Below the pieces are notes generated by a model. It did no database searches, had not been told where the DNA came from, and worked only from the letters and a program-made list of their open reading frames with translations. The translations under genes and the position numbers were made by a program. This document shows positions 10,240 through 52,491 of a stretch of 64,000 nucleotides of DNA, piece by piece. Positions within the stretch are counted from its first letter, which is position 1. Each line of letters begins with the position of its first letter. Source of the stretch: a virus. The stretch lies in the IMG/VR virus record IMGVR_UViG_3300000553_000030, positions 1 to 64,000 of that record. The stretch is one strand, 5' to 3'.

Positions 10240-10438
10240 GATATTAGATAAAGAATCTGTTAAAACACTCGTTTTTAAGCATAAAGATAGTTTTACACAA
10301 GTGTTCAAATCCGATTATACATTCAATACGAATAAAATAGAAACAATTTTAAAACACAGCGCGTGTATAAACCTGGGATTTAAACATGAAGTATGGATTT
10401 TCGATAGGAATAAAAATTTACAGGAAATTATTAAATAA
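10232..10438 (+). CDS. Hypothetical protein after RHH gene (68 aa)
   Basis: A 68-residue protein whose ATG lies within the last codons of the RHH gene, so translation is probably coupled. It has no endonuclease motif and may be cargo that has replaced the nuclease, or a partner of the RHH protein. It ends one base before the glycosyltransferase fragment. Confidence 0.5.
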   Translation: MNKILDKESVKTLVFKHKDSFTQVFKSDYTFNTNKIETILKHSACINLGFKHEVWIFDRNKNLQEIIK

Positions 10439-10439
10439 T

Positions 10440-11000
10440 ATGAATGAACAAATTACTAAGAAAAAAAAGATTCTTTTTATATGCGATGACATCAGATTTT
10501 TTTCAGGCATCGCTGTAATGGCCCGTGAGTTGGTAATGGGAACTATTCACAAATACGATTTTTGTGTTTTAGCAGGTTCGGTAAAACACCCCGAAGCTGG
10601 TAAGGTCATTGATATGAGTCCCGCTGCCAAGGCACAAACTGGTATTCAAGATGCATATCTTCGCTTATATCCAACAGATGGTTATGGTAATGAAGAATCA
10701 TTAATGGCAATTATGAATATCGAGAAGCCCGATGCATTACTATTTTTAACAGATCCACGATATTTTGTGTGGCTTTTCCAGTTGGAAAGACAAATTCGGG
10801 ATAAGATTCCAATGATTTATTGGACAGTGTGGGACAATCTTCCATATCCCATGTGGAACAATAGTTTTTATCAAAGTTGTGATACATTATTGGGGTTTAG
10901 TAAACAATCTGATAATATTCATAAGTGGACATTGAGACCAGAGAACTGTATATCTATAGATGGAGAATTTGACACACTGGGAAACTTAATAAAAGAATAG
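10440..11000 (+). CDS. Glycosyltransferase (GT-B type), N-terminal fragment of a split gene
   Basis: Residues 1-186 form the N-terminal Rossmann half of a family 1/4-type glycosyltransferase (FICDDIRFFSGIAVMARELV; a DNLPYPMW segment; LLGFSKQSDNI). The frame ends ...GNLIKE-stop where an RHH-endonuclease cassette begins. The continuation is at 12098. The sequence ATAAAA occurs on both sides of the insertion (codons I-K before the stop, and I-K after MS in the C-part), and joining there gives a smooth GNLIKNKHLIHPV, so this is a clean insertional break, not an intein. Likely role: transfer of a sugar to phage or host glycan. Confidence 0.8.
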   Translation: MNEQITKKKKILFICDDIRFFSGIAVMARELVMGTIHKYDFCVLAGSVKHPEAGKVIDMSPAAKAQTGIQDAYLRLYPTDGYGNEESLMAIMNIEKPDALLFLTDPRYFVWLFQLERQIRDKIPMIYWTVWDNLPYPMWNNSFYQSCDTLLGFSKQSDNIHKWTLRPENCISIDGEFDTLGNLIKE

Positions 11001-11008
11001 ATTTTAAT

Positions 11009-11033
11009 TGAACTTTTTTGAACTTTTTTGAAT
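11009..11033 (+). repeat. Tandem T-tract repeat before RHH-endonuclease cassette
   Basis: GAACTTTTTT occurs twice in tandem followed by a partial GAAT, with a 10-bp period, just upstream of the CTATATATTA box. In-phase T-tracts bend DNA and tandem repeats are typical operators for RHH repressors; that use is inferred. Confidence 0.6.
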
Positions 11034-11041
11034 GTTACTTA

Positions 11042-11051
11042 CTATATATTA
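11042..11051 (+). promoter_or_regulatory. CTATATATTA box of RHH-endonuclease cassette
   Basis: Variant of the CTATTTATTA box, two bases before the RHH start codon (11054). Candidate late promoter producing a message with almost no leader. Confidence 0.45.
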
Positions 11052-11053
11052 GT

Positions 11054-11203
11054 ATGAAAGAAAAATACAAAGATCGTAGAATAATTAATATAGACAAAGT
11101 GGCGTATGATATAATTAAATCATATTGCATTAAAAATGCATTAGACATGCCCAAGTGGATTGTAAAAATTGTATTACTTGCGATAAATAATAAGGATGTT
11201 TAG
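11054..11203 (+). CDS. Ribbon-helix-helix leader protein of homing cassette 1 (49 aa)
   Basis: The chain has strand RRIINID, helix A (AYDIIKSYCIKNA), then DMPKWIVKIVL as helix B, the RHH fold of small dimeric DNA-binding proteins. The endonuclease follows at once: an ATG within the last codons (11196) and another one base after the stop (11205). I infer autoregulation of the cassette through the T-tract repeat upstream. It has no role in the split glycosyltransferase that surrounds it. Confidence 0.75.
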   Translation: MKEKYKDRRIINIDKVAYDIIKSYCIKNALDMPKWIVKIVLLAINNKDV

Positions 11204-11204
11204 T

Positions 11205-12101
11205 ATGTCAAAAAAACTAATCCATTCTGAATTTATAACGAGGTCTAATAACATTCACGCTTCAGTTTATAATTATTCTCAAACATATTATAAAAATTCA
11301 AGAACAAAAGTTATAATACTGTGTAATAAACACGGCGAATTTACACAGCGACCACATGAACATTTAAGTGGACAGGGATGCCCAAAATGTGGAATGTCAC
11401 GAGCAGGATCAAAAAATACATCCACAACAGAAATGTTTGTCAATAAGGCCAATGAAATACATAATAATAGTTATGATTATTCTCGCGTAATATATATAAA
11501 ATCCAATATTAAAATAAAAATAAACTGTAAATGTCATGGTGAATTTTTACAAACACCAAACCATCATTTACAAAACCACGGCTGTCCGAAGTGTAAAAAT
11601 TTATATACTACGAAAGAATTTGTTGATAGATGTAATAAAATACACAATAATAGATATGACTATTCTAAAACAAAATATTCGGGTATTAAAACAAAGGCTG
11701 AAATTGTTTGCCGTAAACATGGAAGTTTTTTTCAATCTCCCGAACATCACATCAACGGAAAGGGGTGTCCACGTTGTAATGTTTCAAAAGGAGAACAGAA
11801 AATATCCCAATGGTTAGATGCTCGTGGTATAAAGTTTGTTCCACAAAAAGAATTTCAAGATTGTAGAAATCCAAAAACAAACAGAAAATTAAAATTTGAT
11901 TTTTATGTTCCCGAAAAAAATTTATTAATAGAATATGATGGATTCCAACATTTTAATAAAGTATTTGTAGATATAACGTTAGTTCAGTATAGAGATGAAA
12001 TTAAAAATCAATATTGTAAAGATAACAATATTAAATTAATACGGATACCATATACAAAAATAAAAAATATGGATGATATTTTATCTAAGGAGATACAATG
12101 A
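11205..12101 (+). CDS. Homing endonuclease, triple HG-finger plus Vsr-like (EDxHD) domain
   Basis: Three repeats of about 60 residues each have IHxxxYDYSxxxY and CxxHGxFxQxPxxHLxGxGCPxC, a zinc-finger-like DNA-binding module (DUF723-type). The C-terminal nuclease has FDFYVP and IEYDGFQHF, the signature of Vsr-related EDxHD nucleases such as I-Bth0305I. It splits a glycosyltransferase gene. Its last codons contain AAGGAG and the stop TGA overlaps the ATG of the glycosyltransferase C-part, so it supplies the restart signal for the broken gene. An alternative start at 11196 adds three residues. Confidence 0.85.
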   Translation: MSKKLIHSEFITRSNNIHASVYNYSQTYYKNSRTKVIILCNKHGEFTQRPHEHLSGQGCPKCGMSRAGSKNTSTTEMFVNKANEIHNNSYDYSRVIYIKSNIKIKINCKCHGEFLQTPNHHLQNHGCPKCKNLYTTKEFVDRCNKIHNNRYDYSKTKYSGIKTKAEIVCRKHGSFFQSPEHHINGKGCPRCNVSKGEQKISQWLDARGIKFVPQKEFQDCRNPKTNRKLKFDFYVPEKNLLIEYDGFQHFNKVFVDITLVQYRDEIKNQYCKDNNIKLIRIPYTKIKNMDDILSKEIQ

Positions 12102-13075
12102 GTATAAAAAACAAGCACCTAATACACCCCGTCCTACTTGGTTCAGATTCCAATGTATTTAAACCAATTGATAAGAGTGATAAGAAGTTATTGGAGTTCA
12201 AGAAGAAAATTCTTGGTGATGTATCATATGACTTTATTGTATTCTATAATAGCCGTAATATCAATCGTAAGAGAACATCCGATTTATTATTGGCATATCG
12301 TATGTTTTGTGATAATCTTACCAAGGAAGAAGCCGATAAGTGTTTATTGATTATGCACACCGAAAAGGTTTTGGATGCCGGCACTGATTTGGGGGCTGTT
12401 AGCGAAGCTTTTGCCAGTATGTATAATACCAAGGTTGTTGAAGAACGATTCTTACCGGAAGATATGAACCTTCTATACAATTTGTGCGATATAACCTGTA
12501 ATATTAGTAGTAATGAAGGATTTGGTCTGTCTTGCAATGAATCAATGATGTGTGGTTTACCTGTTGTTGTTAATGTTACCGGAGGATTGCAGGACCAGAT
12601 TGGCCAAACTAAAGATGATGGTAGCCCAGTTATGTTTACACATGATTTTGGTACTAATCAAATTGGCAAATATAAGAAGTGTGGATGTTGGGCATATCCA
12701 GTATGGCCAACTACTAGATATATTCAGGGTTCTCCGGCGACCCCATATATCATAGACAGTGTATGTAAGTGGGAAGATGTAGCGGAAGGTATCATGTATT
12801 GGTATTTAATGGACAAAGAAACTCGTATTAAGTGTGGCTTGGAAGGTCGTCGGTGGGCAATGAACGAAGGTGGTACTAATACTAAGAATATGTGCGAACA
12901 ATTTATTAAGGCCATGGATTTTACATTGGAAAACTTTGAACCAGAGTCTAAGTTTAGTATACATACAGACAAGGAACATATGGGTCACTCCATGCCATTT
13001 AATAGTCTAGGATTTGAAATTCCTAAGATTGATAAAGATGGTATTAAGAAACAAACAGAAGAGGTTGAGATATGA
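12098..13075 (+). CDS. Glycosyltransferase (GT-B type), C-terminal fragment
   Basis: This half carries the nucleotide-sugar-binding domain with FYNSRNINRKR near its start and the characteristic SNEGFGLSCNESMMCGLPVV motif of family 1/4 glycosyltransferases. The first residues MS come from the cassette; from IKNKHLIHPV onward the sequence continues the N-terminal fragment ending at 11000. The ribosome binding site AAGGAG lies inside the endonuclease gene. Both halves are intact, so a two-chain enzyme is plausible. Confidence 0.8.
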   Translation: MSIKNKHLIHPVLLGSDSNVFKPIDKSDKKLLEFKKKILGDVSYDFIVFYNSRNINRKRTSDLLLAYRMFCDNLTKEEADKCLLIMHTEKVLDAGTDLGAVSEAFASMYNTKVVEERFLPEDMNLLYNLCDITCNISSNEGFGLSCNESMMCGLPVVVNVTGGLQDQIGQTKDDGSPVMFTHDFGTNQIGKYKKCGCWAYPVWPTTRYIQGSPATPYIIDSVCKWEDVAEGIMYWYLMDKETRIKCGLEGRRWAMNEGGTNTKNMCEQFIKAMDFTLENFEPESKFSIHTDKEHMGHSMPFNSLGFEIPKIDKDGIKKQTEEVEI

Positions 13076-13709: not shown

Positions 13710-14219
13710 ATGGTTATAAAAATTAAGAGACTAACAGAGGATGCCATTATTCCCACACAGGGGAGTAAAGAAGCGGCCGGTTATGATTTATATAGTATTG
13801 AAACCAAGGAATTGAAGCCATTGGAGAGATATCCATATAAAACAGGATTAACTATGGAAATACCATCTGTTGTATATGGTAGAGTGGCACCTAGAAGTGG
13901 ATTAGCTGTTAAGAAGGGTATTGATGTATTGGCGGGTGTCGTTGATTGTTTTTCAGAAAACAGTAGTATAAGAACGCAAGCCGGAGACAAATTAATCAAA
14001 GAATTAAAAATAGATGATGTTATATATTCTGTTAATGAAAATTTAGAAATAGAACGAGATTTTGTTTCTGCCATTGTTAATTTGGGAGAGAAAGAAACAT
14101 TAAAAATAGAAACGGATAATGGAGAATTGGAGATAACTCCGGGAACCATGGTTTATACAGAAACAGGGATAAAAAGAGCCGACGAACTAAAAATAGGAGA
14201 AAAAATATTAAATATTTGA
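13710..14219 (+). CDS. dut: dUTPase N-terminal fragment fused to a split-intein N-half
   Basis: Residues 1-79 hold dUTPase motif 1 (AAGYDLYS) and motif 2 (PRSGLA) and stop in motif 3 at GVVD. Cys80 starts an intein N-half of 90 residues (CFSENSSIRTQAGDK... LKIDDVIYS...). The rest of dUTPase is at 15145-15504. In block B the usual TxxH is TPGT: the histidine that helps the first acyl shift is replaced by Thr. After splicing the enzyme would hydrolyse dUTP to dUMP, keeping uracil out of phage DNA and feeding dTMP synthesis. Confidence 0.85.
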   Translation: MVIKIKRLTEDAIIPTQGSKEAAGYDLYSIETKELKPLERYPYKTGLTMEIPSVVYGRVAPRSGLAVKKGIDVLAGVVDCFSENSSIRTQAGDKLIKELKIDDVIYSVNENLEIERDFVSAIVNLGEKETLKIETDNGELEITPGTMVYTETGIKRADELKIGEKILNI

Positions 14220-14239
14220 TGCTTTCACTTCCGTAATCA

Positions 14240-14249
14240 CTATTTATTA
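14240..14249 (+). promoter_or_regulatory. CTATTTATTA box before dUTPase-intein endonuclease
   Basis: The box is followed after about 18 bases by AGGAGTGATAAT and the ATG at 14277, leaving room for a short leader with a ribosome binding site. Confidence 0.5.
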
Positions 14250-14276
14250 ATAGACAGAGATTATAGGAGTGATAAT

Positions 14277-15188
14277 ATGATAAACTGTAAAATATGCGGA
14301 CATGCTGTACAATATAGATTAATAGAACATTTGGTAAAAACACACAAAATGGATGTGGAAGAATATAAGTTAAAATATGGCCCGGTTATTAGTGCCGAAT
14401 ATCACGCCAAGGTTTCTAAAAAATCGAAAGAAATGTGGAAGGATGATGATTATAGAAATAAAACTAATATCGCAAGAAATGAATCATGGACAGATGAACT
14501 TAAAGATAAACAAAGTACTATCATAAAAAATGTATATAAAAATGGATTTAAATGTTGGAACGACGGATTAACTAAAGAGAATCATCCTAGTTTAGTATTA
14601 ATTGGAGAAAAAAACAAAAAAAATCTAACCGGAAGAACCAAAGAAGAATATCCATATCTAGAAAATAAGTCTAAATTAATGACAGCAAGGCTTAATGAAT
14701 ATTGGGAGGAAGCTGGTTTGTTTAGAAAATATTTTTCTAACAAGGAAAATTTTGATAATTGGAGAGATAAAATATCAAAAACAATATCTGCTAAATGCAG
14801 GAGTGGAGAAATAAAATGTATATCTGGTCATTTTAAAACCGGCTATTATAACGGAACATTTTATCAAAGTGGATTAGAATTGGAAACAATGAAATTATTA
14901 GATTCTATTAATGATGTTAAAAAATGGGAAAGAAATTTTGATGCCGTAGATTATATTGATGTTAAAGGAAAAACTCGTAGATATTTACCCGACTTTAAAA
15001 TTACATTAAATGATGATGATGTCGTTGTATTAGAAATGAAAGGGTTTCCTGACAAATATCTACAAGAAAAAATTACATACGCAAAGAAAAAATATAAGCA
15101 TTATATGGTTTGTTATACTATAGAAGAAGCCAAGGAAAAGTTATATGAAATTATCAACAATAAAAAACATAACCAAATCAAAAAATAA
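14277..15188 (+). CDS. Putative homing endonuclease within the dUTPase split intein
   Basis: The N terminus is a CxxC...H...H zinc finger (CKICGHAVQYRLIEHLVKTH), a DNA-binding module. The C-terminal part has RYLPDFK and, after a short loop, VVLEMKG, the PD...ExK motif of restriction-type nucleases. It differs from the Vsr-like nucleases of the other inteins. It overlaps the dUTPase C-part by 44 bases, and its codons provide GGAAAAG ahead of the start at 15145. Confidence 0.8.
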   Translation: MINCKICGHAVQYRLIEHLVKTHKMDVEEYKLKYGPVISAEYHAKVSKKSKEMWKDDDYRNKTNIARNESWTDELKDKQSTIIKNVYKNGFKCWNDGLTKENHPSLVLIGEKNKKNLTGRTKEEYPYLENKSKLMTARLNEYWEEAGLFRKYFSNKENFDNWRDKISKTISAKCRSGEIKCISGHFKTGYYNGTFYQSGLELETMKLLDSINDVKKWERNFDAVDYIDVKGKTRRYLPDFKITLNDDDVVVLEMKGFPDKYLQEKITYAKKKYKHYMVCYTIEEAKEKLYEIINNKKHNQIKK

Positions 15189-15504
15189 AGTATATGATAT
15201 TACCGTAGAAAATAATCATAATTTTTTCTGTAATGGTCACTTGCTACATAATTGTGATTACCGTGGTGAAATTATGGTGGCTTTAATCAACTTAGGTCAA
15301 GAGCCAGTTACTATTAATAAAGGCGACAAGATAGCACAGATCATATTTGAATACTTTGCTTCTGTGTCATTCTCCGAAACCAAGGAATTAACCAATACAC
15401 AGAGAAATGATGGTGGTTTTGGATCTACTGATAAAATAAACAGACAAAACAGCGATTTAGGTGTATCATTAGAAGACATCAACAAAGATTTGTCAATAAA
15501 GTAA
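15145..15504 (+). CDS. dut: Split-intein C-half fused to dUTPase C-terminal fragment
   Basis: Residues 1-36 are an intein C-half with block F (VYDITVENNHNFFCNG) and block G ending LLHN. Cys37 is the first extein residue, then DYRGEIMVALIN (rest of motif 3), KIAQIIFEY (motif 4) and RNDGGFGSTD (motif 5, which closes over the substrate). A tail of about 25 residues follows. Trans-splicing with the product of 13710-14219 would restore a full dUTPase. Confidence 0.88.
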   Translation: MKLSTIKNITKSKNKVYDITVENNHNFFCNGHLLHNCDYRGEIMVALINLGQEPVTINKGDKIAQIIFEYFASVSFSETKELTNTQRNDGGFGSTDKINRQNSDLGVSLEDINKDLSIK

Positions 15505-40601: not shown

Positions 40602-41069
40602 TTATTCGTCATCATCCATGTGTTTTTTCCATTTATTACTGAGCAATTTCTTCACAATGTTTTCACTATCACCCATTTGCCCCATGATACCAACACCCTC
40701 TTGTGATTTTTCATCAAATAACTGAATATCTCCACAACCAGCATTCATTTTACTGGGGAATGTAATACCATCTGGACCAAATCGGTTTTTAATAATGTGA
40801 AATCTTGCGGTATTGCTGACTTTATCAGTAACTTTTCTGCTCAATGATAATACAAAGTCTGCCGTCATAATTTTTCGATAGCTATCTGCAATACCATCGG
40901 CCTGAATAATATCATCATCCATAGCGGAATTGTGCGTGTAAATGTCATTAGCGAAAAACATATGAGTATCATCTACTGTAATGTCTATGGTTTCTTTGTC
41001 TCCAATACATTCTATGCTTACTATTTCATCTAATTTAAAATCGTTTGGGTTAAGATTGTGTTCTTTCAT
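40602..41069 (-). CDS. Split-intein C-half fused to gp41-like helicase C-terminal fragment
   Basis: Residues 1-47 are an intein C-half (ETIDITVDDTHMFFAND, ending YTHN). Ser48 begins the extein SAMDDD and continues with the last RecA-fold strands of a DnaB-type helicase (VLSLSRK, IIKNRFGPDG). The junction SNR/SA corresponds to the known gp41-8 split-intein site. It needs trans-splicing with the middle fragment (42212-43327). Separated from the endonuclease gene by 59 bp with its own AGAGGAAA. Confidence 0.88.
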   Translation of the reverse strand: MKEHNLNPNDFKLDEIVSIECIGDKETIDITVDDTHMFFANDIYTHNSAMDDDIIQADGIADSYRKIMTADFVLSLSRKVTDKVSNTARFHIIKNRFGPDGITFPSKMNAGCGDIQLFDEKSQEGVGIMGQMGDSENIVKKLLSNKWKKHMDDDE

Positions 41070-42484
41070 ATTATATTTTCCTCTGTGTTGTTTAAAAGTT
41101 TGCCAAGTTCCAAGTCATAATGGAGACTTTACCGCCATTCCATATTTTCCTCTATAAATTTAATACATTTTTCTGTTGTTTGTTGTTTGTTCTGAAGATA
41201 TTCCTGTTCTTTTATTCTCAATAATGAATATCCATTTCTAATTAAAAATTTATCCTTTATTTTGTCTCGTTTTTTTGCGTGTGTAAACGAATGCCAGTAT
41301 TCTCCGTCAAATTCTATTATTACATTTCCACACTTAAAGTCAACAAAAATAATTTTTTGAGGTTCGGTATCCATATAAAATTTTTGTTCTTCATTTAATG
41401 TGAAATATTTGGTTTCTTTCTTATAATCACTTGATAAGTCTTTATAAATATCATCAAATAATTGTTGTGATATTTTACTATACGGATTTCCTTTTCTACA
41501 ATTACTAATCATATTATCAATGTGTTGATAATATTTTTTTATACCTTTATTTTTTCCAAATCGTTTTACAAATCCTTCTAATGATAATGTATGTTTTCGT
41601 TTTTCTATTTTATTTTTCCACAATTTATATCCGTTTTTTATTCCATGTCTATCTTGAAATTCTTCTAGTGTTTGTCCATTTTTTCTATTTCCAAGTTGTG
41701 TAGTTTTATCCATACTATTTTTCCATTTAGAATAATATTCATTCCACCTTTTTGCGCCTTCTTCTTTGCCATATTTTTCAATATAACCATCCAATCCAAG
41801 ATTGCTTTTCTTCTTATTACACAACTCTTTCCATTCTTTTTTGGTATAATCTTCTTTTTTTGTCTTTACCTTTTCAGCTCTTTCATTAAATAATATTTTA
41901 GCAACATTTTCTCCATATTTAATGGTTAATGCATCCAAAGAAAATCCATCTCTTTTAAATTTATCACCACCATTAAGTCGTTCTATCCAATTACCATCAA
42001 CATTATACTTCATCATATTTTGAATGACTTCTTTTCTATTATTCAAAATATATCGTTTGTCAAATACATTAATGATGTTTTTTATTTGTTCTAGGGAATG
42101 TTCATTTAGAGTATTAACAAAATTTTTAAATGGTTTTTGATTCAAAAACTGTTCAATATTATTAAAATTTTTATTCATATACTATAAATATATGGAAAGC
42201 ATCCCAAAGTGTCATTTTTTTACAAATAATTTATCCCCAATGGATAATCCCGATTCGATGCTCCTCAATTTTCCATATTGTGTTGGAAATCTATGTTTTA
42301 TCGAACATTCAATGTATTTACCACTCTTCAACTTTATTCTATAAACCGGCTGTTTTTCAACAGGAAATATGAAAGACACTGTTTTATATCCGTCGATAGT
42401 CAATATTTTGTCACCAATCTTTAAATTTGACACCTCTATTTTCCCTCTAACCTCTTCATCTACAACGGTTTGTAAAGAAAAACA
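40929..42484 (-). mobile_element. Split intein plus endonuclease inserted at the gp41-8 site of the helicase
   Basis: IntN (42215-42484) is 90 residues beginning CFSLQT with block B SIKH; IntC (40929-41069) is 47 residues. An EDxHD endonuclease gene (41129-42178) lies between. The fragment lengths and sequence style fit the gp41-8/gp41-1 class of split inteins. Confidence 0.88.
41129..42178 (-). CDS. Vsr-like homing endonuclease within the gp41-8-type split intein
   Basis: A long N-terminal basic region with repeated LNRHGxxxGYKLWKxK-like units (e.g. FQDRHGIKNGYKLWKNK; FVKRFGKNKGIKK) probably reads the target site. The nuclease core is VIIEFDGEYWHSF with RDKIKDKFLIRNGYSLLRIKE, i.e. the E, D, W-H of EDxHD enzymes. 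ATATTTATAGTAT precedes the ATG at 42178. Confidence 0.82.
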   Translation of the reverse strand: MNKNFNNIEQFLNQKPFKNFVNTLNEHSLEQIKNIINVFDKRYILNNRKEVIQNMMKYNVDGNWIERLNGGDKFKRDGFSLDALTIKYGENVAKILFNERAEKVKTKKEDYTKKEWKELCNKKKSNLGLDGYIEKYGKEEGAKRWNEYYSKWKNSMDKTTQLGNRKNGQTLEEFQDRHGIKNGYKLWKNKIEKRKHTLSLEGFVKRFGKNKGIKKYYQHIDNMISNCRKGNPYSKISQQLFDDIYKDLSSDYKKETKYFTLNEEQKFYMDTEPQKIIFVDFKCGNVIIEFDGEYWHSFTHAKKRDKIKDKFLIRNGYSLLRIKEQEYLQNKQQTTEKCIKFIEENMEWR

Positions 42485-43327
42485 CCTGTTACTTTGTGAT
42501 GCTGTCCAAATCGGTATTTGCAGTTCTCCTGCTACGCCACGAAGTTCTTCGTAAATTCCTCCTGCCTCTTGATAACTATTACTATTTTTATCTGATGTGG
42601 ATGGTCTCAGAATATCAGCGTAATCAACAATAATCATATCAACTTTAGTGCCCAGCATCATTACTCGTTCAGCATGAGCCTTAATTGATAGTGGTGATAT
42701 GGTTTTGATTGGATAATATTTGATAATCAATTTCCCAGAGATTTCAGAAATCTTGGCCTTGACGATATCAATGTTTTTTCTAATTTGTTGAAAATCAATT
42801 CCTGTAAAACACGCATCATATCTCAACCCAACATAATTTTCATTTAGTTCCAGTGTATAATGAATTACATTCTTGCCCTGTCTAAGTGCCTCGGCACCAA
42901 TTCGTGACAAAACCCAGGAATTATGTGATAAAATTCCATTACTATAATAACAATGAACATCTTCTACGGAAATGTCATATAGAACCTCCAGTTTTCCCAT
43001 TCGTTTGGACACGAGTTTCGTATTGCCACATTCAGTTTCAATCAATTCATTTTTCTTTATATCCTCTACATATTTCCACTGGCCATTCACTTTTAACCGA
43101 TGTTTTCCCGACGTTTTAAGTGTCTTATTATTTCCAAAATAACTTGTCACGGATTTTTGATTTTCCGTTCTAAATACTGTTACTATGTTTTTATATCCAT
43201 ATGGAGTCTTCACTTTTACTGGAAATTGTAGTTGTTTAGTGGCATGCGCTTTATCATCAACTAATAATCTGTCAAACAAATCCTTCATTTTTATTTTTTC
43301 ATTTATAACCCTAATTAATTTTTTCAT
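42212..43327 (-). CDS. gp41-like helicase middle fragment between two split-intein halves
   Basis: Residues 1-136 are the C-half of intein 1 (block B SGKH near 73-76, block F YDISVEDVHCYYSNG, end LSHN). Extein residues 137-281 start SWVLSRIGAEALRQ, just after the Walker A lysine, and include MIIVDYADIL (Walker B) and WTASQSNR. Residues 282-371 are the N-half of intein 2 starting CFSLQT. Both splicing events are needed to make a helicase. The start at 43327 lies inside the endonuclease gene, whose Lys-Glu codons form AAGGA. Confidence 0.9.
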   Translation of the reverse strand: MKKLIRVINEKIKMKDLFDRLLVDDKAHATKQLQFPVKVKTPYGYKNIVTVFRTENQKSVTSYFGNNKTLKTSGKHRLKVNGQWKYVEDIKKNELIETECGNTKLVSKRMGKLEVLYDISVEDVHCYYSNGILSHNSWVLSRIGAEALRQGKNVIHYTLELNENYVGLRYDACFTGIDFQQIRKNIDIVKAKISEISGKLIIKYYPIKTISPLSIKAHAERVMMLGTKVDMIIVDYADILRPSTSDKNSNSYQEAGGIYEELRGVAGELQIPIWTASQSNRCFSLQTVVDEEVRGKIEVSNLKIGDKILTIDGYKTVSFIFPVEKQPVYRIKLKSGKYIECSIKHRFPTQYGKLRSIESGLSIGDKLFVKK

Positions 43328-44282
43328 AATATTCCTTTATAATCTTTATACATTCTTCGTTATTTTTTTTCCAATCTTCTTCCCAAATCACTAACACATT
43401 ATATCCGACAGACTTCAAATATTCAATGCGTTTTTTGTCATACTCCCAAAGCTCTTTTGCGGTTTTGTTAATATTAAATGACTTTATTAAATCGGCTTCT
43501 TCATAGAATTTCGGATTTGCGTGCCAAAAATCACCATAAAATTCAATAATATAATTTTTGTATAATATATCCACCACATATCTATCTATTGGGACATTAG
43601 CCTGAATATCATTATTAATATTTTCCTTAATATACAAATAAAATTCCTTTTCTATTTTGGAATTTCCATTGAATTCTCCGAAGTGTCTCACCCACTTTCC
43701 GATTCCAATATTCGCAATTTTTTTCTTCATTGAATTTGAAATTTTCACCTTTTGTTCATCGGTTCGCGTCTTTCCTAAATATTTGGTTGACCTAGCCGAT
43801 AGTTTAGATTGCAAATTTCGTATTTCTTCAATGGCCGCGTCTTCTGACATTCCCTTTCTAATCATCCAATATTCTTTTTTAAAACATGAATTTTCAGGCT
43901 TTATTTTTGATACAGATTTCCTCGCGTTTTCTTTTTGTATATCTGTTACTTTGGCTTTGGCGGCTTCTTCTGTCATGCCATTTTGCATCCAATATTGATA
44001 TCGATATATAGAAAATTCTTTCTTTTGTTTCATATACATAAATAGTATCCAATAATCATAAAAAGTCAATTTTTTATGTTATTTTTCCACAACCACTGAT
44101 TTTTTATATTTTTCAATTTCAAAAAAAACATTTTCAACTTGCCATCCAAATAATTCTTTATCATCAATTTTATAAATTTCAAACGGATTAATCCATAAAA
44201 TATAAGGATTGCCAGAATTTCCGACGATTTCTATACCAAATTCATGATATTGAATTTCAATTTCCGTGTTTGGACCAACACA
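42920..44282 (-). mobile_element. Split intein plus endonuclease inserted in the helicase Walker A motif
   Basis: IntN (44082-44282, 67 residues, CVGPNTEIEIQ...) follows AGAGK; IntC (42920-43327, 136 residues) ends LSHN before SW. The block B histidine is in IntC and not IntN, so the break is early, as in atypical split inteins. A Vsr-like endonuclease gene (43311-44033) lies between. Confidence 0.85.
43311..44033 (-). CDS. Vsr-like homing endonuclease within the Walker A split intein of the helicase
   Basis: The N-terminal half has two YWMxxGMxEEAAxxxxxxxQ repeats, probably DNA-binding. The nuclease core is IIEFYGDFWHANPKFY with VLVIWEEDW. I start at the ATG at 44033 (MKQKKEFSIYRY), which follows a CTATTTATG box; the frame is open further. 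The last codons contain AAGGA used by the next gene. Confidence 0.83.
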   Translation of the reverse strand: MKQKKEFSIYRYQYWMQNGMTEEAAKAKVTDIQKENARKSVSKIKPENSCFKKEYWMIRKGMSEDAAIEEIRNLQSKLSARSTKYLGKTRTDEQKVKISNSMKKKIANIGIGKWVRHFGEFNGNSKIEKEFYLYIKENINNDIQANVPIDRYVVDILYKNYIIEFYGDFWHANPKFYEEADLIKSFNINKTAKELWEYDKKRIEYLKSVGYNVLVIWEEDWKKNNEECIKIIKEYYEKIN

Positions 44283-44897
44283 TTTTCCTGCTCCGGCACA
44301 AGCAGTAACAATTCCCAATTCTCCGGGTGCCAATCCACCATCCATTGCAACATCAATCACTGGCCAATTTGTTTTAATTGTATTACGGGCCATTACGCTC
44401 ATCCGTTTATCAACATCAATGATATAATCATGCCCAACATTTCTTTCCATACCAGCTTTCAAAGCATTATCAACACGGACCTTAATTTTTTCATACTCAC
44501 CACTTTTCAGATGTTCAACACTATCAACAATTGCACTTTTCAGTGTCTGATTTTTACAAAATTCCAAAAATTCATTTTTTATAAAGGTAATATCAGAATC
44601 AGATATTTTCTGGTATACCTGCCGCAATTGATCTACAATAGATGCCCTCAATATTTCCGACTGAAGCTCTCCTGTCTTTATCTTGAATACTTGTGGCGTG
44701 GGAATATCCTTATATTGATTGAAGTATGTAATGATTACATTTACAATCCATTTATGAGCATCACTTTCCCAATAATCTTCTTTTATAATATCATAAATTC
44801 TTTCCAAAAATGTCTTTTCACCTAATAGACATGAAATGCTCTTTACTTGAAAATCTGTTCCGAATTTGGTCAACGTGTCATTGTTATTGTTATTCAT
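44079..44897 (-). CDS. gp41-like helicase N-terminal fragment with intein N-half
   Basis: Residues 1-205 form the N-terminal domain and the start of the RecA core of a DnaB/gp41 replicative helicase, ending in the Walker A AGAGK. Cys206 starts the intein N-half (67 residues). The ATPase site is therefore complete only after protein trans-splicing. A possible promoter (TTGAAC, 17 bp, TAACAT) and AGGAATAC lie upstream. Confidence 0.85.
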   Translation of the reverse strand: MNNNNNDTLTKFGTDFQVKSISCLLGEKTFLERIYDIIKEDYWESDAHKWIVNVIITYFNQYKDIPTPQVFKIKTGELQSEILRASIVDQLRQVYQKISDSDITFIKNEFLEFCKNQTLKSAIVDSVEHLKSGEYEKIKVRVDNALKAGMERNVGHDYIIDVDKRMSVMARNTIKTNWPVIDVAMDGGLAPGELGIVTACAGAGKCVGPNTEIEIQYHEFGIEIVGNSGNPYILWINPFEIYKIDDKELFGWQVENVFFEIEKYKKSVVVEK

Positions 44898-45017
44898 AAT
44901 TTAGTATTCCTAATGTTACTACAAGAACGAAAATAGTTCAACATTTTATAAAACTTTTTTCTGTGGGTAATAATAGATAGTTATTATAAACACGGACAAA
45001 ATTTTTTAATTGTTCTT

Positions 45018-48626: not shown

Positions 48627-49435
48627 TATTCCTCTGTACTGGAGTCAACTTCGACATCTTCTCTGATCAAACTATTTGGTTCTTTATATCGCATAATAAC
48701 AGCATCACAGATTTTGAGATACAATTCTTCCTTCAATTCTGGTCTTTCAACCATCATCTTAACAAAATCAGATGATTGGAATTTTTCATCATTATATGTA
48801 TAATATGCTCCGCCCTGTTGAATAATACCATTATCCTTCAATACTCGTAACCAACTTGCATAATCTGCAATACCAGAATCATAATAAATATCGAATTCAG
48901 CGGTTCGATTGGGTGGTCCCATGCGATTTTTAACAACCACTGCCTTGCATTTATTACCAACCACAACTTCACCTTTCTTCAATTTACCAACACTATTCAA
49001 GCGAACACGAACTGAACAATGATATGCTAATGCTTTACCACCACTAACCGTATTATGGTTTAGTCTGCCATTCGCGTAATAATTTTCAGAATTTTCTACT
49101 TCAAAATCTACAACTTTGATTGGTTCATCCACCTTCTTAAAATCAATATGGTCCTTCAAATGAATATCATTCCCATTTTCAATTATTCTGTGTAAATTGG
49201 TTCCTTTCAATTGACCATCTGTATAATGTTCAAAAACTTCAGGTTTAACAATAAATTTAGTAATTTTATTATAACAATCAGTTCCCATTTTTAAATCCTT
49301 ACCAAAAATTTCAACATCGGATTCTTCAATATTAAATTCCATTGGTGTAGAAAAGTCTGCCAATGATAAAAATCTTTCAGCAAACTCTGCAATTGTAATT
49401 TCTTCTTCAATATATTCATTTTGTGTTGTATTCAT
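48626..49435 (-). CDS. recA: Split-intein C-half fused to RecA C-terminal fragment
   Basis: Residues 1-128 are the C-half of the second RecA intein, containing block B (GTNLH about 79-82) and ending LNHN. Thr129 begins the extein TVSGGKALAYHCSVRV, equivalent to the TTGGNALKFYASVR region of bacterial RecA, and the C-terminal domain follows (AEFDIYYDSGIADYASWL). Ends in an acidic tail. AAGGA for its start is encoded in the endonuclease gene. Confidence 0.9.
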   Translation of the reverse strand: MNTTQNEYIEEEITIAEFAERFLSLADFSTPMEFNIEESDVEIFGKDLKMGTDCYNKITKFIVKPEVFEHYTDGQLKGTNLHRIIENGNDIHLKDHIDFKKVDEPIKVVDFEVENSENYYANGRLNHNTVSGGKALAYHCSVRVRLNSVGKLKKGEVVVGNKCKAVVVKNRMGPPNRTAEFDIYYDSGIADYASWLRVLKDNGIIQQGGAYYTYNDEKFQSSDFVKMMVERPELKEELYLKICDAVIMRYKEPNSLIREDVEVDSSTEE

Positions 49436-50573
49436 TTATTTGTTCCTTTATTTTATCCAAAGTATTAATTATATCATCTTCCCAAAAATATAAATATGTA
49501 TATCCATTTTCTTCAAATGTCAGTTTTCTCTTATAGTCATATTCTCTAACTTGTTTAACGGTTCTATTTTTGTGAGTATATCCGCCATCACCAAAAAATT
49601 TAGGATTAGCATGCCAAAAATCTCCATAACATTCAATAATAATCTTCTTAGATTCTACATAAAAATCTGGCAAATAACAAGATATTTTAAAATTGAAAAG
49701 TTTATCATGTTCCCATTTAATATCAAAATCATTTAAAATTTTACCAACAAGATATTCAATGTTGTTTAGTTTATACCCATTCAATTCAAAATTTTTATTT
49801 TTTGATGAATTTATCATTTTATAAAATAAATTACTATTATTCGTTTTTGCATTATTCCACATGTTCTTCGCTGCTTTGCTTATCTTCGATACCCGATTAG
49901 GAGCATTCATTATATTGTGAATAAACTCACTATTTTCTGGGTTTTTGTAAAATTCACTGACTTTTTTTCCGTGGTTTTCGTATGAATAATCCCTCGCTCC
50001 CATTGTTTTTTTCACATATTCGTCAGTTTTCCACAATTCTATATTTTGTTTGGAAATTTGATTGGCGTGAAGATTTCCCCAATCAGATTGTTTCTTCCTT
50101 ACTATATCACCAATTTCAGAAGAATACATTTTTATAAGACCCTGACTATTATTAATGTGTAATGTATTCAAATATACCAACAATTTTTCTTTATATCCAT
50201 CGAAATTTTTGATATAAAATGGAATCAGTGAATATAAACTAAATAACTTCTTTCTTTGTTTATATATTTCCTTCCCAACAATTTCACCGAGATAATGTGT
50301 ATAATATGACTCCCCTGTTTTAGATATTCGTTTATTTTTATACATACATTTCAGTGGAAATTCAGTTGTTATCTTCTTTTCCTCTTTTATTTTAAATTTA
50401 AATTTTGGTATATTACTTTTCCATTTTAATTCAATATCTATATAATCTAATATATTCATTTTGTCCCCTCGCACCATATACTTCTATGATATAAATATAT
50501 AGTAAAAGTTGGAAACGCAATAAATTTACACTTTATATCTAATTTTAATTTTAGTGGTGAATGGATCAACACA
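49052..50573 (-). mobile_element. Second atypical split intein plus endonuclease in recA
   Basis: IntN is only 15 residues (50529-50573, CVDPFTTKIKIRYKV), IntC is 128 residues (49052-49435). It is inserted after MFGDKY of RecA, before TVSGGKA. A Vsr-like endonuclease gene (49416-50459) lies between. Confidence 0.87.
49416..50459 (-). CDS. Vsr-like homing endonuclease within the second recA split intein
   Basis: Long N-terminal region with NUMOD-like elements (MNAPNRVSKISKAAKNMW). The nuclease core is IIIECYGDFWHANPKFFGDGG, ending TYLYFWEDDI. I use the ATG at 50459 with GAGGGGACAAA upstream. Last codons Lys-Glu contribute AAGGA to the next gene. Confidence 0.83.
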   Translation of the reverse strand: MNILDYIDIELKWKSNIPKFKFKIKEEKKITTEFPLKCMYKNKRISKTGESYYTHYLGEIVGKEIYKQRKKLFSLYSLIPFYIKNFDGYKEKLLVYLNTLHINNSQGLIKMYSSEIGDIVRKKQSDWGNLHANQISKQNIELWKTDEYVKKTMGARDYSYENHGKKVSEFYKNPENSEFIHNIMNAPNRVSKISKAAKNMWNNAKTNNSNLFYKMINSSKNKNFELNGYKLNNIEYLVGKILNDFDIKWEHDKLFNFKISCYLPDFYVESKKIIIECYGDFWHANPKFFGDGGYTHKNRTVKQVREYDYKRKLTFEENGYTYLYFWEDDIINTLDKIKEQINEYNTK

Positions 50574-51386
50574 ATATTTATCTCCAAACATCATTGCATT
50601 CAAATTAACACGCAATTGATTTGTATAAACAATCAGTACCTTTTGACGGCCAATCATATTAGTAATCTTACGCATTGCTTTACTAATAATAATAGCTTTT
50701 CCAGTTGCATAACCATCCTTACCATGTTCACTTTCTTGCTCGGCCTTTGTGGATGCACCGGCCACTGAATCGACTACAATCGTAACCAATGAATCAGAAT
50801 TATTTTTTCTAATGTATGCAATAGCAGATTCCATCACTTCAAAGATTTCTTCAACAGTTTCTCGTTGAATATATAGCAATGATGATAAATTGACACCAAG
50901 ACTCTTCCAAAATTCAGGAGCAGCAGAATTTTCAGTATCAATAACAATGGCTTTACCACCCTTACGTTGTGTTTCAGCACAAATATGCGCGGCAATCAAT
51001 GATTTGCCGGTATTGTGATTAAGCATACCATTGCCAAAATAACAATGTTCGTTATCCTTAACTGTAATATCTACGATTCGTTCTTTTCCAATATAATCAA
51101 TAGATGTTATCTGATAATACTTCTTATCTTCACAATAAACTTTTGTTTGTGCCGGAATAATTTCTTTTGTTTCTAACCATCCCAAATTAGTAAAAAATTT
51201 ATGTTCTTTGCTAACTTTTATAGAATTTCCATTTTCTAATGTAACCTTATATGTATCCAATAACCCCTTGTCAACAAAATCTGTTATTTCTGTGAATATA
51301 TCACCTTTGGTTAATACTTTAACCCGTTTTCCTTCAAACATTAAGTTTAAAACTTCACCAATTGTTATTTCTTTTATTTCTGTCAT
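50526..51386 (-). CDS. recA: RecA middle fragment between two split-intein halves
   Basis: Residues 1-125 are the C-half of intein 1 (block B SKEH about 59-62, ending LNHN). Extein residues 126-271 start TGKSLIAAH, completing the Walker A motif, and include IVIDTENSAAPEFW, TIVVDSVAGA (Walker B) and VLIVYTNQLRVNLNAMMFG. Residues 272-286 are a 15-residue intein N-fragment and then a stop. AAAAGGA before the ATG is part of the upstream endonuclease gene. Confidence 0.92.
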   Translation of the reverse strand: MTEIKEITIGEVLNLMFEGKRVKVLTKGDIFTEITDFVDKGLLDTYKVTLENGNSIKVSKEHKFFTNLGWLETKEIIPAQTKVYCEDKKYYQITSIDYIGKERIVDITVKDNEHCYFGNGMLNHNTGKSLIAAHICAETQRKGGKAIVIDTENSAAPEFWKSLGVNLSSLLYIQRETVEEIFEVMESAIAYIRKNNSDSLVTIVVDSVAGASTKAEQESEHGKDGYATGKAIIISKAMRKITNMIGRQKVLIVYTNQLRVNLNAMMFGDKYCVDPFTTKIKIRYKV

Positions 51387-52465
51387 TTTATGTTCCTTTT
51401 TAGTTTGTCGTGATTTTTATCATCAATTGTGATAATTTTTTTATTTATAAAATTTTCAATATATTCTAAATTATACTTTGATATGTCAAACGTATTTTCT
51501 GTTATATACTTACAAGTTAAATTATACTCTTTACAATATTCTTTCAGTGCATTATACTTTAACACATTTTCATCAGTAGTCAACAATTTATATGGTTTTA
51601 TTTCACAAATTTCGATGCCATTTATTACAATATCGGGACAATATGTTCTATGAATATTCTTCATTTTATATTTTATTCTATGTTTGGATGGGGCAAATTT
51701 AATATTATTTTCCATTAAATATAAAAATATTTTAAGTTCTAATGTTGATCTACAAAAATATATATTTCCCACGCGATTGATATGACATTTTACTCCTATT
51801 CCAGCTTCTTTTCCGGGAGATTTTCCGTACATTGGATTTAACTTTCCAGTTTGTGGATTGTCTTTTGGATAACCATATCGTTCACATAATTGTTTACATT
51901 TTTTTTCACCAAACCCAAATTCTTTTTTAAGTTGTTTGTATACCATTTCTTTATAAATTAATCTGAATTTTAATTCTTCAAATCGTTTAATTATTTCAGG
52001 TGTTATTGGTTTTAATTCTTTATTTTTTAATGTTAATGCTGACAATTTTCCGTTTACTCGTGCAAGTTTGGCTTTCTTTTTTTTACCATTCTCTACAGCA
52101 ATATCATACAATCCAACAAAAATCAAATAATTGTTAACCTGTTTAATCGGTATATTTATCAATTTCCAAACATCATATGTTGTATAACCTTCATTTTGTA
52201 TGCCGTTTCTTATTTTTTCACCAAAAGTATCGTGAACATTTAAATTTTGAAAATAATGACGGTTATCAACATCTTGTTTTGATTTATTAGATTTATACAA
52301 TTGATTATTTTCTTTTAATTTATTATATACACCATTGGCCTTTGCTATTCTATGTATCGGTTTTATCCCAATCAACATGCTATTTGCAATGTCTACCTGT
52401 CCCATTCCACAATTTATAAAATTAATCAATTTTTGCTCATCTACTATTGTTTTTTTCATATACAT
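51383..52465 (-). CDS. Putative homing endonuclease within the first recA split intein
   Basis: The C-terminal nuclease has TYCPDIVI and EICEIKP, a PD...ExK core unlike the Vsr-type nucleases of the neighbouring intein. The N-terminal two thirds include several helix-turn-helix-like segments (MGQVDIANSMLIG; YTTYDVWKLINIPIKQV). ATG at 52465 or 52459; CTATTTATA lies at 52492-52500. Overlaps the RecA middle fragment by four bases. Confidence 0.78.
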   Translation of the reverse strand: MYMKKTIVDEQKLINFINCGMGQVDIANSMLIGIKPIHRIAKANGVYNKLKENNQLYKSNKSKQDVDNRHYFQNLNVHDTFGEKIRNGIQNEGYTTYDVWKLINIPIKQVNNYLIFVGLYDIAVENGKKKKAKLARVNGKLSALTLKNKELKPITPEIIKRFEELKFRLIYKEMVYKQLKKEFGFGEKKCKQLCERYGYPKDNPQTGKLNPMYGKSPGKEAGIGVKCHINRVGNIYFCRSTLELKIFLYLMENNIKFAPSKHRIKYKMKNIHRTYCPDIVINGIEICEIKPYKLLTTDENVLKYNALKEYCKEYNLTCKYITENTFDISKYNLEYIENFINKKIITIDDKNHDKLKRNIK

Positions 52466-52491
52466 TCCATTGGTCGTATACTATAAATAGT

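What the first reader, a model, noticed from the sequence alone, without database searches (positions are those of the whole stretch)
13710..15504. Fractured dUTPase whose split intein lacks the block B histidine
The dUTPase motif 3 is interrupted between GVVD and (C)DYRGEI by an IntN of 90 residues and IntC of 36 with a PD-ExK endonuclease gene between. In block B the expected TPxH is TPGT (codons ACT CCG GGA ACC), so the His that assists the N-S acyl shift is a Thr. The rest looks intact (Cys1, block F, HN, +1 Cys). Either this intein uses another residue or it splices poorly, leaving dUTPase in two chains. I do not recall a fractured dUTPase gene being described.
Basis: partly seen in the sequence, partly recalled or inferred. 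Interest (0 to 1): 0.85.

Follow-up and report, generated by a model that had tools for sequence, protein, structure and literature searches.

The report
Fractured dUTPase, split intein without histidine
A phage dUTPase gene is cut in two by a split intein (a self-splicing protein insert) and a DNA-cutting enzyme gene, and every copy of this insert found in other viruses also lacks the one histidine that almost all inteins use to start splicing, so it very probably splices by a modified chemistry that can now be tested.

Summary
Confirmed. Window 13710-15504 holds a dUTPase gene broken inside motif 3, after the catalytic Asp (GVVD | CDYRGEI). The pieces are IntN (90 aa), a PD-(D/E)xK endonuclease gene, and IntC (36 aa) plus the dUTPase C-half. 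Block B is TPGT and IntN has no His at all. Profile alignment puts Thr67 opposite His73 of the Ssp DnaB intein.

The missing His is not decay. About 50 IMG/VR contigs carry the same arrangement. Among 22 distinct dUTPase-site IntN sequences none has the His (Thr or Ser in 21, Lys in one divergent case); 189 of 193 inteins at other sites keep it. IntN is under strong purifying selection (dN/dS 0.06-0.21), even where the endonuclease gene is lost, so splicing is probably still required.

The arrangement is the known 'fractured gene' kind. The dUTPase host and the family-wide loss of His B:10 appear new; the reviews read here name only Tko CDC21-1 and one pseudogene as lacking it. Four CDC21-like control inteins carry a similar TxNT motif. 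Which residue compensates is unresolved: Asp(-1) is in all members, Cys(-8) of IntC in most. Splicing itself is inferred, not shown.

The parts
13710..13946 (+). dUTPase N-extein, 79 aa: motifs 1 and 2 and the first part of motif 3, ending in the catalytic Asp (residue -1)
   Evidence: PF00692 1.7e-14; TIGR00576 positions 2-81
13947..14219 (+). IntN, 90 aa (Cys1 ... ILNI) plus stop
   Evidence: Hint-type profile hits, family alignment A5, AlphaFold model and match to Npu DnaE IntN
14136..14147 (+). block B Thr64-Pro-Gly-Thr67; Thr67 stands at His B:10
14277..15188 (+). free-standing endonuclease gene, 303 aa: N-terminal Cys2His2 pattern and C-terminal PD-(D/E)xK nuclease, TnsA-like
   Evidence: invariant C4, C7, H18, H23, E201, P238-D239, E253, K255 in 15 relatives; model matches TnsA
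15145..15252 (+). IntC, 36 aa, ending block G His-Asn; Cys(-8) and His(-5) are family-typical
   Evidence: TIGR01443 3e-7; alignment A2
15253..15504 (+). dUTPase C-extein, 83 aa from Cys+1 (rest of motif 3, motifs 4 and 5) plus stop
   Evidence: PF00692 4.3e-16; TIGR00576 positions 82-141

Best explanation
A fractured dUTPase gene whose two halves are rejoined at the protein level by a class 1 split intein. IntN and IntC associate, Cys1 attacks the bond after the catalytic Asp, Cys+1 takes over the N-extein, Asn cyclises, and an intact dUTPase (GVVD-CDYRGEI) results. The intein activates its N-terminal junction without His B:10: Thr/Ser at B:10 with Thr B:7 probably holds and strains the scissile bond, and the remaining activation comes from elsewhere, most likely the Asp(-1) of the dUTPase active site, perhaps helped by Cys(-8) of IntC. 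The endonuclease between the halves spreads the element by homing into intein-free dUTPase genes. Shown: gene anatomy, absence of His across the family, purifying selection, fold, nuclease motif. Inferred: that splicing occurs, which residue compensates, and homing.
For: Complete dUTPase profile across the break. Cys1, block F Asp and His, His-Asn and Cys/Ser+1 kept through the family. No His at B:10 in 22 of 22 distinct sequences. IntN dN/dS 0.06-0.21 in 11 pairs, IntC 0-0.17 in six. Lineages without the endonuclease gene keep both intein halves (L009/L016 IntN dN/dS 0.065, IntC identical), so selection acts on the intein itself. Asp(-1) is present in every member including the divergent L110. 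Precedent: Tko CDC21-1 splices with Thr at this position (PMC5874633, PMC4031507), and bulky -1 residues rescued a His73Ala intein (PMC6333167). Intein dS is below extein dS in most pairs, consistent with homing.
Against: No splicing assay exists. Asp(-1) is imposed by the host enzyme, so its conservation proves little. Eight control inteins with Asp(-1) keep His, seven with Ser1 and one with Cys1 (L239). Cys(-8) is missing in L033 and L110. The main group is one clade, so the correlations are not independent events.
Confidence: 0.72

Rival explanations
1. The intein no longer splices, or barely does; dUTPase works as two chains held together by the associated intein fragments.
For: His B:10 is essential in many inteins (PMC6333167). 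In the window the intein lacks any His in IntN.
Against: Residues needed only for splicing (Cys1, terminal Asn, penultimate His, Cys/Ser+1) are kept in the family; strong purifying selection on the intein; the break lies inside the catalytic motif, next to the catalytic Asp.
Confidence: 0.1
2. The compensating residue lies in the intein, not the extein: Cys(-8) of IntC, with or without His(-5), took over activation of the N-terminal junction.
For: Cys(-8) in 16 of 18 family IntC against 0 of 33 relatives; His(-5) in 12 of 18, not seen among the listed residues of the relatives. Position -8 should face the same side of its strand as the block F His (inference).
Against: L033 (Ala) and L110 (Gly) lack Cys(-8); L001, L008 and L009 lack His(-5).
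Confidence: 0.2
3. Loss of His is a brake rather than a defect: with Asp at -1 and Cys at 1 a fast N-S shift would release the N-half by hydrolysis, so a slow first step was selected and splicing may be slow or conditional.
For: Asp at -1 is known to promote N-terminal cleavage in Sce VMA and Mxe GyrA constructs (own knowledge, not checked here). Seven of eight Asp(-1) control inteins use Ser1 instead of Cys1.
Against: One control with Asp(-1) and Cys1 keeps His (L239). No kinetic data.
Confidence: 0.2
4. Alignment or sequence error: a block B His exists but was missed.
For: None found.
Against: Profile alignment to 1MI8, MAFFT with four known inteins, zero His in IntN, 22 concordant sequences.
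Confidence: 0.01

Closest known systems
Fractured genes with split inteins in phages (gp41, NrdA, NrdJ, IMPDH; Dassa et al. 2009, from memory)
   Same: Host gene in two ORFs around an endonuclease gene, IntN of about 90 and IntC of about 36 aa, insertion at an active-site motif
   Different: dUTPase as host gene; His B:10 absent in the whole family; TnsA-like PD-(D/E)xK nuclease rather than the Vsr-like type I recall for the original fractured genes
Tko CDC21-1 intein and its orthologues (Tori et al. 2012, cited in PMC4031507, PMC5874633, PMC6333167)
   Same: Thr at His B:10, other class 1 residues kept; the CDC21-like controls found here read T-x-N-T, close to TPNT, TSNT and TENT of this family
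   Different: Archaeal, contiguous, Leu at -1; uses Lys58, for which no counterpart is conserved here
UvsW split intein of Salmonella phage S16 and relatives
   Same: Best IntN match in annotated phages (36% identity); fractured gene with a TnsA-like endonuclease between the halves
   Different: Helicase host, Glu at -1, keeps His (TGNH)
Ssp DnaB mini-intein, M86 variant with His73Ala (PMC6333167)
   Same: Same fold; shows that an intein can do the N-S shift without His B:10 when the -1 residue is bulky
   Different: Engineered; the natural Ssp DnaB intein needs His73

Membership tests
Class 1 intein | Cys or Ser at position 1 | tested here: met
   Cys1 invariant in 19 aligned members
Class 1 intein | Thr at B:7 | tested here: met
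   Thr64 in 18 of 19, Pro in L110
Class 1 intein | His at B:10 (highly conserved, known exceptions) | tested here: not met
   Thr67; 0 of 22 distinct members have His. Published exceptions show it is not strictly defining (PMC4031507)
Class 1 intein | Block F Asp and His, penultimate His, terminal Asn, Cys/Ser/Thr at +1 | tested here: met
   YDITV...HNFF...HN-C
Class 3 intein | No Cys1 and Cys at F:4 | tested here: not met
   Cys1 present; F:4 is Asp
Fractured gene with split intein | Extein and intein divided over two ORFs with a free-standing endonuclease gene between | tested here: met
   endonuclease lost in L009, L010, L012, L015-L017
Fractured gene with split intein | Trans-splicing restores the host protein | not testable with these tools
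   No assay; inferred from selection and complete dUTPase profile
Tko CDC21-1 type without block B His | Thr in place of His B:10 | tested here: met
   PMC5874633
Tko CDC21-1 type without block B His | Compensating Lys58 | tested here: inconclusive
   The only invariant Lys is K15, also common in inteins with His; exact counterpart of Lys58 could not be fixed without the Tko sequence
dUTPase | Five conserved motifs in the joined protein | tested here: met
PD-(D/E)xK homing endonuclease | PD-(D/E)xK catalytic signature | tested here: met
   TnsA match
PD-(D/E)xK homing endonuclease | Cuts the intein-free dUTPase site and spreads the element | not testable with these tools
   Indirect only: intein dS below extein dS in most pairs

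The most novel reading that the evidence does not exclude
A widespread phage family of natural split inteins has replaced the most conserved catalytic intein residue, using a configuration tied to the dUTPase site (Asp(-1) of the host enzyme's own active site, Thr/Ser at B:10, Cys(-8)) that amounts to a new mechanistic subclass of class 1 inteins, partly convergent with archaeal CDC21-1 (TxNT).
Probability: 0.45. Interest if true: 0.75.

Novelty: new variant of a known kind. Interest (0 to 1): 0.62.

Why it matters
His B:10 is called the most conserved intein residue, and a 2014 review knew two inteins without it, one of them a pseudogene (PMC4031507). [quoted passage not shown] It may also supply split inteins suited to Asp at -1, a junction that ordinary inteins handle badly (own knowledge). 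If splicing is shown, it adds dUTPase to the phage enzymes assembled by protein trans-splicing.

Tried and rejected
Misalignment of block B: rejected by profile alignment to 1MI8 and by MAFFT with four known inteins. Decay or sequencing error in this phage alone: rejected by 22 concordant sequences. Class 3 mechanism: rejected, Cys1 is present and F:4 is Asp. Lys58-type compensation: no conserved candidate. Asp(-1) as a strict cause of His loss: weakened by L239 and seven Ser1 inteins that have both Asp(-1) and His. A relative in cellular genomes: two scans of genome contigs found no dUTPase-site intein (the loci are other proteins). Annotated phages: no place covering 80% of IntC plus dUTPase C-half in 50,697 records; IntN found only the UvsW intein of Salmonella phages. 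Scan of viral contigs with the single N-half sequence gave nothing; alignments did. Rfam scan of the window: no match. The Fisher test printed used slightly different counts and ignores shared descent; it is not used.

Full report
OBSERVATION. The finding is real at the stated coordinates. dUTPase N-half plus IntN occupy 13710-14219, an endonuclease gene 14277-15188, and IntC plus dUTPase C-half 15145-15504. The dUTPase profile TIGR00576 is matched to position 81 by one half and from position 82 by the other, so the break is exact and the joined enzyme would have all five motifs. The break falls inside motif 3, right after the catalytic Asp. A viral dUTPase without the insert (L024) reads straight through the site: TPGTVD-GNFRGEIMVALINLG.

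BLOCK B. The codons at 14136-14147 read T-P-G-T. A profile of nine family members aligns this to T-A-N-H, His73, of the Ssp DnaB intein. IntN contains no His; the intein's only His residues are in IntC at -12, -5 and -2. The AlphaFold model of IntN (pLDDT 88) matches the Npu DnaE IntN crystal structure best, TM 0.80, so the fold is that of a normal intein.

RELATIVES. Five scans of IMG/VR contigs gave about 50 contigs (hand count) with a dUTPase-site split intein. Among 22 distinct IntN sequences, the window included, none has His: TPGT 8, TPNS 6, TSNT 2, TLNS 2, TENT 2, TPNT 1, and PLKK 1 in the divergent L110. Two of the scans used patterns outside block B, namely IntC and the N-junction, and gave the same answer. 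Residue -1 is Asp in all; +1 is Cys, or Ser in L033. L110 is a different dUTPase (TIGR00576 4e-14 in its N-half, NF010561) with another type of endonuclease, perhaps an independent invasion; the tree cannot place it. The other 20 members in that tree form one clade with support 100/98.

CONTROLS. Twenty-one other inteins in the fetched viral loci, the S16 UvsW intein and four reference inteins all have His (26 of 26). In a sample of 167 unique inteins drawn almost wholly from the phyla of an archaeal and a cyanobacterial genome, 163 have His. Together that is 189 of 193. The four without it all have Leu at -1 and read T-x-N-T. The solved structures matched by one of them are CDC21 inteins, and they fit the Tko CDC21-1 group, which has Thr instead of His (PMC5874633) and Leu at -1 (PMC6333167). 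In the window itself, the UvsX and DnaB split inteins read VSKEH, TNLH, TSGKH and CSIKH at block B (TNLH is my reading by eye), so the dUTPase intein is the exception within its own genome.

SELECTION AND MOBILITY. In 11 pairs of relatives IntN dN/dS is 0.06-0.21, and in six pairs IntC dN/dS is 0-0.17. Where the endonuclease gene has been lost (L009, L010, L012, L015-L017; 84 nt left between IntN and the IntC match in those measured), L009 and L016 still show IntN dN/dS 0.065 and identical IntC proteins. The endonuclease therefore does not explain the selection on the intein. In most pairs synonymous divergence is lower in the intein than in the exteins (L019/L025: IntC 0.05 and IntN 0.71 against 1.2 and 1.6), as expected if the element moves between dUTPase genes. 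These are small counts and rough Nei-Gojobori estimates.

ENDONUCLEASE. Fifteen relatives share Cys4, Cys7, His18 and His23 (a zinc-finger pattern) and E201, P238-D239, E253 and K255, the PD-(D/E)xK signature. The AlphaFold model (pLDDT 77) matches Tn7 TnsA best among solved structures, though only over the nuclease domain. It is probably the homing enzyme; activity is untested.

MECHANISM. Splicing is the best reading because the residues that only splicing needs (Cys1, Asn, penultimate His, Cys/Ser+1) are kept throughout the family. How the first step is driven is open. Features that set this family apart from His-containing relatives are: Thr/Ser at B:10; Asp(-1), universal but imposed by the host enzyme; Cys(-8) in IntC, 16 of 18 against 0 of 33; His(-5), 12 of 18; and Asp38 in IntN, 18 of 19 against 4 of 26. 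Published precedent exists both for another intein residue (Lys58 in Tko CDC21-1; PMC4031507) and for a bulky -1 residue (PMC6333167). I favour Asp(-1) with Thr/Ser at B:10, at low confidence. Against a strict link, eight control inteins with Asp(-1) keep His, seven with Ser1 and one with Cys1. Because most of the family is one clade, these correlations are not independent events.

LITERATURE. No open-access paper holding both 'split intein' and 'dUTPase' was found, and the papers holding 'intein' and 'dUTPase' that I opened do not describe an intein in dUTPase. Subscription papers and intein databases could not be searched, so novelty of the host gene is likely, not proven.

VERDICT. A known kind of arrangement in a new host gene, with a family-wide change of the most conserved intein residue: new variant of a known kind.

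Noticed in passing
48629-51416 (and nuclease-like ORF 51386-52480), minus strand: UvsX/RecA-like gene appears fractured twice by split inteins with endonuclease genes between. The second break leaves an IntN of only about 15 aa (FGDKY|CVDPFTTKIKIRYKV), an atypical split; the UvsX N-terminal piece was not identified.
   Followed up: partly
40605-44900, minus strand: DnaB/gp41-like helicase gene fractured twice: at the Walker A site (GAGK|C ... HN|S) and at the SQSNR|C site that resembles gp41-1, each with an endonuclease gene between.
   Followed up: partly
10386-13075, plus strand: A glycosyltransferase-like gene looks split by an HNH-type endonuclease gene (11196-12101); no Rfam intron match.
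   Followed up: no
L126:1814-4540 (Salmonella phage S16): UvsW of a cultured phage is a fractured gene with a split intein (NDE|C, block B TGNH) and a TnsA-like endonuclease (gp114.1); the record annotates the pieces as separate helicase and hypothetical genes.
   Followed up: partly
L009, L010, L012, L015, L016, L017: Fractured dUTPase genes that have lost the endonuclease gene but still keep IntN and IntC as separate reading frames.
   Followed up: yes
L062:2064-2243: C-half of this dUTPase is shortened (CSYNINDKDRG...), most of motifs 3-4 missing: a deletion or an assembly error.
   Followed up: no
L110:4533-6297: Divergent dUTPase with a split intein at the same site, a different endonuclease type, and PLKK in block B; possibly an independent invasion that also lacks the His.
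   Followed up: partly
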